Assembly (NCBI GenBank): GCA_022822185.1
Contig: JAJECE010000015.1
Span: 1-41,384, forward strand
Origin: Rhodothermales bacterium
GTDB lineage: Bacteria; Bacteroidota; Rhodothermia; Rhodothermales; Bin80
Direction: 5' to 3'
DNA length: 41,384 nt
In this document: positions 39,132-41,384 of the stretch, piece by piece
Numbering within the stretch: position 1 is the stretch's first letter
How the letters are laid out: each line of letters opens with the position of its first letter
The notes under the pieces: model-generated
The model's database searches: none
Seen by the model: only the letters and a program-made list of their open reading frames with translations
What the model was told of the DNA's origin: nothing
Position numbers and translations under genes: made by a program

Positions 39132-39950
39132 ATGGACGCTGGAGAAATTATGACATTGGCAAGAGGTGAAAATGTTTATACAACCGGTGCTCCGCCGTGC
39201 ATTGGAATTGGCCTGAAATGGTCAGGTGAGGAGTACAGTACGGCATTGCAGGGCCCGGTGGCTGCAGTCTTATTTGATGATGTGGGAAAGGGCGAAGCGG
39301 AAGAGATGTTGAGTGGGTTCACCGATACTCATTTTGATCAAGCTCGCCTAGACCGCATTTTTACAGATTCAAGGTATCCAAAGCCATGGCAAGCAGGAGA
39401 GGCGATTGCAGAAGCCTGGCTGGTTGCTCATCGGAACTGTTATTTTCCATGGTCAGTAAAGCGTGACATGCGGAAACAGGGGTCCAGCCTTCCAGGGGCA
39501 GATCTGGTTGGTTTACATGTTGACGCTCATGGTAATTGCATAGCTTTTGGTGAAGTTAAGACATCTTCGGAAGAACAGTATCCACCAAGGGTGGTGTACG
39601 GTGATGAAGGCCTCAGAAAGCAACTCAAAGATATTCGTGACAACACTGCTGTACGGAATGATCTGTTTCGATATTTAGCTCACCGAGCTGTGCGGGCTGA
39701 CTGGAAAGAACGCTTTCAAGAAGCGGCTAAACGATATTTAGCCAATCAGTCCGATGTTCGAATGTTTGGATTCCTGGTACGGGATGTCTCACCAAATGAG
39801 ATGGATTTAAAGGGGACAGTCCGCGATATCGGCCGGAATTGTCCAGGCAGTATGGTGATAGAAGTATTCGGCCTGTACATACAAGGTAATATGAAAAGAT
39901 GGGCGCATTTTCGTATCGTCTGTCACACTATTCATTTAACCTCAATTCAC
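39132..39950 (+). CDS. PD-(D/E)XK nuclease-like protein, probably a phage-defence gene, running in frame into an IS110 transposase
   Basis: The first 273 residues of a 633-residue open frame (39132-41033). The pattern Glu90 (WQAGEAIAEAW), Asp124 (LPGADLVGL), Glu141-x-Lys143 (FGEVKTSS) fits a restriction-endonuclease-like active site with its helix Glu, Asp and ExK. Downstream GLRKQLKDIRDN, LFRYLAHRA and VRMFGFLVRDV look like a conserved globular domain rather than random coding. The layout resembles nuclease subunits of defence systems such as HamA of Hachiman (DUF1837), but I cannot confirm that family, and no helicase partner is visible. The native end seems close to MKRW (about residue 257). 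There is no stop before the transposase ATG at 39951. Confidence 0.6.
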
Positions 39951-41319
39951 ATGTACAAAAAGGTTTATTTCGGGCTGGATGCCCACAATCACAGTTGCGT
40001 TCTCGCAATAATGGATCAGGATGGAGTCCTGGTCTCTAATGAGGGGTTCGGAACCTCGGAAGCTCGGCTGATTCACGCCGTGTCTTCAATCCGGGCTCAC
40101 CACAAACTCTTGGCCGTGGAAGAATCGTCCCTGGCGGGTTGGATCGCGACGACGCTGCGCCCCTATGTGACGGAGTTAATCGTTTGCGATCCCCGGCAAA
40201 ATGCGCTGATCAGCCGTAGCGGGCACAAGGATGACTTCGCAGATGCGTTTAATCTCTGTCGACTGCTTCGCCTGGACGAATTGTCTCCGGTCTATCACGC
40301 CGATGAGTCCCACCGTATAGATTTTAAAATTGCGGTGCAGCAGTATTTATCGTTCCGGGAGGAGCATGCCAAGCTGAAACGGCAGATCAAGGCGAAATTC
40401 CAGCAGGCTGGAATTGTTCGTACGGCGGGCATCAAAATTTATAACAAGACGCATCGGGATCATTATCTCAATCAGTTATCGACGGATACGCGGCGAGAAA
40501 TCGTTCTGAACCTGTATGAATGTCTGGATACAACGGGCAAAATGCGAAAAAAGGCTCGTGAATCTATGATCAAACTGGGAAAACGCTATCCGGAGATCCA
40601 GCAATTCATGCGCGTGCCCGGTGTTGGAATTGTCGGAGCTCATGTATTCAGTGCATTTATTCAGACCCCGCACCGGTTTGCGACCAAACAGCGACTGTGG
40701 AAATACTGCAGGCTTGGCATTCGTGAACAGAGCAGTGCCGGGAAGCCATTGGCGTATAAACGACTGGATTCTTCTGGATCAGGAATCCTGAAGTCCATCA
40801 GTTATCAGTGCTGTCTGTCTGCGCTGCGCACCAAGGATCCGAACGAAGTTTCATTATTCTACGAAGCTTCCTTCCAACGCACGGGGAACAAAACCCACGC
40901 GCGGCTCAATACACAGCGCAAGGTACTGGCGGTTCTTTGGACCATCTGGAAAAACAATGTAGATTATAACCCCAAACTTTTTTATTCACCACCTAAATCC
41001 GCGGTGACCGCGCAGTCTGTGACGAATTCATAGTGCTTTGCAACGGATGCTTGCGGATCCGGGTAGCCGGGATATGCTCCAACTGGGATTTTAACTCCAA
41101 TCTACGGAAGTTCTATACGAGGTTAGCAGCCCGGCCTTTTTGCCCAATAAGACATTAGAGCCCAAATTGGGACTCTCCCAAACGAGTCTGGCAATCGTAT
41201 GAATGCTTTTTTTTACCCGTCTAAGAAGATTCGCATCAAAGCAGACCTTAAGTTCAGCACAGACATGAATTCTTCCTGGTAACAGGCTACACGAAAATAT
41301 CATCACGGAGGATGCGCCC
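39901..41319 (+). mobile_element. IS110-family insertion sequence (ends uncertain)
   Basis: Defined by the transposase at 39951-41033. IS110 elements lack clear terminal repeats and target duplications, so the ends are estimates. GGGCGCAT at 39901-39908 recurs inverted as ATGCGCCC at 41312-41319; if these are subterminal repeats, the element has a short left end and a right end of about 280 bases, as in the IS1111 subgroup. An 8-base match between windows of this size is not rare by chance. Confidence 0.4.
39951..41033 (+). CDS. IS110-family DEDD recombinase/transposase
   Basis: A 360-residue transposase from the ATG at 39951 (MYKKVYFGLDAHNHSCVLAI). The RuvC-like DEDD residues are Asp10, Glu57 or 58 (AVEESSLAGW), Asp95 and Asp98 (SGHKDDFADAFNL). 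The C-terminal Transposase_20 domain shows MRVPGVGIVGAHVFSAFIQT, RFATKQRLWKYCRLGI and a Ser/Gly segment (LDSSGSGILKSISYQ) where the family has its catalytic serine. The frame appears intact, so the element may be active. Members are guided by a bridge RNA encoded in a non-coding end. It is in the same frame as the upstream nuclease, so both could be made as one 633-residue fusion or separately. Confidence 0.88.
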   Translation: MYKKVYFGLDAHNHSCVLAIMDQDGVLVSNEGFGTSEARLIHAVSSIRAHHKLLAVEESSLAGWIATTLRPYVTELIVCDPRQNALISRSGHKDDFADAFNLCRLLRLDELSPVYHADESHRIDFKIAVQQYLSFREEHAKLKRQIKAKFQQAGIVRTAGIKIYNKTHRDHYLNQLSTDTRREIVLNLYECLDTTGKMRKKARESMIKLGKRYPEIQQFMRVPGVGIVGAHVFSAFIQTPHRFATKQRLWKYCRLGIREQSSAGKPLAYKRLDSSGSGILKSISYQCCLSALRTKDPNEVSLFYEASFQRTGNKTHARLNTQRKVLAVLWTIWKNNVDYNPKLFYSPPKSAVTAQSVTNS

Positions 41320-41384
41320 TGTAAAATTTCGTTCATTTTGCAGTAGAAGGGGAGGTGCGTACGAAACTTATCTTTTCAAACGAG
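41034..41384. other. Non-coding right flank of the IS110 element
   Basis: About 350 bases to the window end without a credible gene. It holds several small stems, the clearest being TTGGGA-CTC-TCCCAA at 41167-41181, and a partly palindromic CCGGGTAGCCGGG at 41060-41072. In IS1111-type elements the bridge RNA lies after the transposase, so part of this region may be such an RNA. I cannot fold it reliably by eye. Confidence 0.35.

What the first reader, a model, noticed from the sequence alone, without database searches (positions are those of the whole stretch)
39132..41033. Defence-like nuclease and IS110 transposase joined in one open frame
A 273-residue PD-(D/E)XK-like domain runs without a stop into a complete IS110 transposase that has its own ATG. 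Either the element landed in frame near the natural end of the nuclease gene, leaving the nuclease nearly whole with a foreign tail, or the fusion is used. A programmable DEDD recombinase fused to a nuclease would be new; the conservative reading is a chance insertion. It also tells where an IS110 chose to land in a defence-type gene.
Basis: partly seen in the sequence, partly recalled or inferred. Interest (0 to 1): 0.6.

Follow-up and report, generated by a model that had tools for sequence, protein, structure and literature searches.

The report
IS1111-type insertion in Hachiman-like nuclease gene
A common kind of jumping gene (an IS110/IS1111-family insertion sequence) has landed 19 codons before the end of an anti-phage nuclease gene and happens to share its reading frame, so two unrelated genes look like one; this is an ordinary gene disruption, not a new fusion enzyme.

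Summary
The open frame at 39132-41033 is real, but it is a by-product of a simple insertion. The nuclease is HamA-like (PADLOC PDC-M23A, Hachiman-type fold). An IS1111-type element, 39886-41384, sits after its codon 252. The window contig ends exactly at the element's right end; contig C103 of the same genome begins with that right end and continues with the missing 19 codons, the stop and the overlapping helicase partner (PDC-M23B, HamB-like). Joining the flanks reproduces the empty site of a sister genome without a gap and a 271-codon nuclease frame. A 98% identical element copy sits antisense in an unrelated methyltransferase gene. None of 80 database homologues, nor any other relative found, is fused; their genes run about 16-28 codons past the junction point and usually overlap the helicase start. 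About one in six random insertions into a gene would be in frame. Likely outcome: altered C-terminus, lost coupling to the helicase, an impaired defence operon. Whether the fused product is made is untested. As no target base was lost, precise excision could restore the gene: the only mildly interesting residual idea.

The parts
39132..39887 (+). 5' part (252 codons) of a HamA-like PD-(D/E)XK nuclease gene, PDC-M23A; likely true start ATG 39150
   Evidence: PADLOC PDC-M23A E=3.8e-88; alignment with the uninterrupted gene of G003, identical order of genes; D124, E141, K143 invariant
39884..39885 (+). AG core at the left junction (repeated at the right end)
   Evidence: AG|GT boundary conserved in the related copies whose left ends are shown; flank joining restores the empty site
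39886..41384 (+). IS1111-type element of the IS110 family, 1,499 bp
   Evidence: 98% identical 1,498-bp copy at another site in G003:C83; right junction on G000:C103
39888..39950 (+). left-end leader, 21 codons open only in the tnp frame; joins the two frames
   Evidence: translation of the three frames; the same open leader in the G003:C83 copy
39892..39900 (+). left subterminal inverted repeat TGAAAAGAT (further matching block TTTCGTA at 39909-39915)
   Evidence: alignment of the two element ends
39951..41033 (+). IS110-family transposase gene, 360 codons and stop
   Evidence: PF01548 and PF02371
41034..41384 (+). long 3' non-coding region of the element, the place where IS1111-group elements carry their guide RNA; guide not demonstrated
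   Evidence: position and length, PMC11187229 and PMC11208160; target matches not above chance, folding not above shuffles
41370..41378 (-). right subterminal inverted repeat TGAAAAGAT (further block TTTCGTA at 41360-41366)
   Evidence: alignment of the two element ends

Best explanation
An IS1111-type element of the IS110 family inserted by its normal non-duplicating recombination at an AG core, at codon 252 of a 271-codon HamA-like nuclease gene. By chance its transposase frame matches the nuclease frame, and its left end is open in that frame, so the nuclease frame reads through into tnp. The nuclease loses its last 19 residues (a predicted C-terminal helix) and its ATGA overlap with the HamB-like helicase gene, which now lies beyond the element. 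Shown: both junctions, the restored empty site, the missing 3' end and the partner gene, and a second copy of the element elsewhere. Inferred: that the two-gene defence operon is impaired, and that any fused polypeptide is incidental.
For: Empty site with the same gene order in G003. G000:C103 starts with the last 141 bp of the element and continues with the rest of the nuclease gene and the helicase. Joined flanks match the G003 site over 120 bp with 3 substitutions and no gap and give an open 271-codon frame ending in ATGA. 98% identical copy of the element in an unrelated gene; its removal also restores an open 454-codon methyltransferase-like frame. No fusion in 80 homologous loci or among matches in 394 genomes of the phylum, where other frames are 265-294 aa. 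In-frame chance about 1 in 6.
Against: C5 and C103 are separate contigs; a second identical right end exists in G000:C104, so the physical link C5-C103 rests on the base-exact match to one target site rather than on a spanning contig. That the operon is impaired was not tested.
Confidence: 0.95

Rival explanations
1. The fused 627/633-residue protein is made and used, for example as a nuclease tethered to an RNA-guided recombinase.
For: The frame is open throughout and the catalytic residues of the nuclease (D124, E141, K143) are intact; ribosomes starting at the nuclease would by default read into tnp.
Against: Single occurrence; the element moves alone; the predicted C-terminal helix and helicase coupling are lost; the frame match is expected by chance in 17% of insertions.
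Confidence: 0.02
2. The element is a reversible switch: its precise excision restores the nuclease gene and the operon, as scarless excision is known for the family (IS492).
For: No target base lost or gained beyond the core; scarless excision is described for the IS110 family (PMC11208160).
Against: No excised allele was seen in G000; the sister allele lacks the element but carries a TGA at codon 136. Nothing indicates frequent switching.
Confidence: 0.04
3. The junction is a misassembly.
For: Metagenome-type assembly; the contig ends inside a repeat that shares 141 bp with another contig.
Against: The left junction lies at the same element end as in other copies, and the right junction, on an independent contig, completes the same target site base for base.
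Confidence: 0.02

Closest known systems
IS1111 group of the IS110 family (PMC11187229, PMC11208160)
   Same: DEDD-type transposase domains PF01548 and PF02371, short left end (65 nt), long 3' non-coding end (351 nt), subterminal inverted repeat of 9 bp, insertion without target duplication beyond a short core.
   Different: Transposase of 360 aa is slightly longer than the 330-350 aa reported for the IS1111 group; guide RNA not demonstrated; the element was not matched to a named IS.
Hachiman HamA/HamB (PMC12278908; PDB 8vx9)
   Same: HamA fold (Z 17.0 to 8vx9_A on a homologue), active-site D...E-x-K, adjacent HamB-like DEAD-box helicase.
   Different: About 14% identity in the structural alignment; Pfam HamA not reached; PADLOC files both proteins as PDC-M23; in the window the nuclease gene is interrupted.
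PADLOC candidate system PDC-M23
   Same: Best profile match for both genes (M23A E=3.8e-88; M23B E=0).
   Different: The two genes are separated by the element in this genome.

Membership tests
IS1111 group (IS110 family) | DEDD transposase domain PF01548 and C-terminal PF02371 | tested here: met
IS1111 group (IS110 family) | long non-coding region downstream of tnp, short left end | tested here: met
   65 nt left, 351 nt right
IS1111 group (IS110 family) | subterminal inverted repeats of 7-17 bp | tested here: met
   TGAAAAGAT, 6 nt from each end, plus TTTCGTA
[quoted passage not shown]
   best matches no better than with shuffled targets
IS1111 group (IS110 family) | conserved G--P----S(T)G motif in the C-terminal domain | tested here: inconclusive
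   the sequence reads GIREQSSAGKP at the likely place; not aligned to reference members
Hachiman (HamA) | HamA fold | tested here: met
   8vx9_A Foldseek E=2e-7, Z 17.0 over 244 residues; model made on homologue L058
Hachiman (HamA) | match to Pfam HamA (PF08878) by sequence | tested here: not met
   no match for the window protein; only E=0.03 for one homologue
Hachiman (HamA) | adjacent HamB-type helicase | tested here: met
   C103:200-3475, HamB profile E=4.5e-55, best match PDC-M23B; now beyond the element
PADLOC PDC-M23 | M23A and M23B side by side | tested here: met
   the pair is separated by the element in G000 but adjacent in G003
PADLOC PDC-M23 | anti-phage activity | not testable with these tools
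   no paper on PDC-M23 in the library

The most novel reading that the evidence does not exclude
The fused nuclease-recombinase polypeptide is translated in this strain and keeps an activity, or the element serves as a reversible on/off switch of the defence operon.
Probability: 0.05. Interest if true: 0.45.

Novelty: already known. Interest (0 to 1): 0.1.

Why it matters
As a fusion it matters little. It is a cleanly resolved example of an IS1111-type element entering an anti-phage nuclease gene, with base-exact empty-site evidence, and a reminder that a long open frame joining a gene to an IS110 transposase is expected by chance in about one intragenic insertion in six.

Tried and rejected
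Relaxed selection as proof of decay: dN/dS of the nuclease between G000 and G003 is 0.52, against 0.15 for the helicase and 0.08-0.11 for moaA and argG, but three other close pairs without an insertion show 0.42-0.48 as well, so it is not diagnostic. Guide RNA matches to the target (TACCCGTCT, ATACGAGGT in the 3' non-coding region): no better than with shuffled targets. Folding of that region: not more stable than shuffles. Rfam: only one sub-threshold tRNA-like match. Model of the whole fusion: mean pLDDT 53, because the mixed alignment misplaced the C-terminal half of the nucleases; not used. Literature on PDC-M23: none held. Searches for papers on IS110-nuclease fusions returned nothing relevant by title and abstract. 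First search of solved structures by sequence gave HamA only at E about 0.5; the fold comparison settled it.

Full report
Observation. The window holds an uninterrupted ORF at 39132-41033 (633 aa). Its first half matches PADLOC PDC-M23A (E=3.8e-88) and its second half the two IS110 transposase domains. The likely nuclease start is ATG 39150, preceded by ggag, where the PADLOC profile also begins. The native nuclease sequence ends at codon 252; residues 253-273 come from the element's left end.

Anatomy of the insertion. The window is the whole contig G000:C5. A 98% identical element in G003:C83 and the AG|GT boundary in related copies fix the element at 39886-41384: 65 nt left end, tnp of 360 codons, 351 nt right end. 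Subterminal inverted repeats TGAAAAGAT and TTTCGTA are present at both ends. The contig stops exactly at the element's right end. Contig C103 starts with the same last 141 bp and goes on with GTGCCCGTCTGAG..., the last 19 nuclease codons, the stop, and the overlapping 1,091-codon helicase gene, which matches PDC-M23B (E=0) and HamB profiles.

Empty site. Joining the two flanks of the G000 element gives the G003 site with 3 substitutions in 120 bp and no gap, and an open 271-codon nuclease frame ending in ATGA. The insertion therefore neither lost nor duplicated target bases beyond the core. The G003 nuclease allele itself has an in-frame TGA at codon 136.

Comparison with relatives. Among 80 loci from the collection of 84,980 genomes no nuclease gene is joined to an IS110 element. 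In 79 of them 16-28 codons follow the junction point before the stop (one partial match has 12), and the helicase start overlaps the nuclease stop by 4 nt in most. Of 394 genomes of the phylum, the other eight matches have open frames of 265-294 aa, against 637 here. Other intact copies of related elements have upstream open extensions of only 4-61 codons. A simulation of random insertions of this element into the window's genes gives in-frame fusion in 17% and an extension of at least 250 codons in 9%.

The nuclease. A model of the uninterrupted homologue L058 (mean pLDDT 88) matches E. coli HamA (8vx9_A: Foldseek E=2e-7; Z 17.0, rmsd 4.4 over 244 residues). D124, E141 and K143 of the window protein are invariant among the aligned homologues. 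The part lost in the window corresponds to a final helix (residues 255-266 of L058). In the published HamAB structure HamA is soluble only with HamB and contacts it through other segments (HamA 30-63, 102-117, 159-199; PMC12278908), so the effect of losing the last helix is not known; loss of coupled helicase translation is the more predictable damage (inference).

How it most likely works. IS110-family elements circularise and insert at RNA-specified sites around a short core (PMC11208160, PMC11187229). By its anatomy this element belongs to the IS1111 group; the guide RNA itself was not demonstrated. The match of reading frames is coincidental. The consequence is most likely an impaired defence operon. 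Excision could restore it, as the family is known to excise without a scar, but nothing shows this at this site.

Verdict. A real open frame with an ordinary cause.

Noticed in passing
L008/L057 (G003:C80, JAJECV010000099.1), nuclease codon 136; L011 (G014:C3), codon 83 of the match; L016 (G012:C64); L020 (G005:C84): Several relatives of the nuclease carry an in-frame stop (TGA or TAG) while the helicase frame stays open in those looked at; independent losses of the effector are possible.
   Followed up: partly
L055 (G003:C83:588-2091): The 98% identical copy of the element lies antisense in a C5-cytosine methyltransferase-like gene, which becomes one open 454-codon frame when the element is left out.
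   Followed up: partly
L054 (G000:C104:9222-9330): A second identical right end (109 bp) of the element at a contig end, with a different flank (TACCCGTCCGG): at least two copies in this genome; the left end of the second copy was not found.
   Followed up: partly
G014:C1:84028-88788 (L165): Related IS110 elements seem to lie head to tail with a period of 1,504 bp.
   Followed up: no
window 39132-39887 against L056: The nuclease differs from the G003 gene mostly in its first 176 codons (34 of 37 differences), while codons 177-238 are identical in DNA: patchy divergence, perhaps recombination.
   Followed up: no
L056:2-3575: Next to the intact operon in G003 lies a repeated two-gene unit (an AAA ATPase-like and a 240-aa protein, judged by eye), possibly another defence system.
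   Followed up: no
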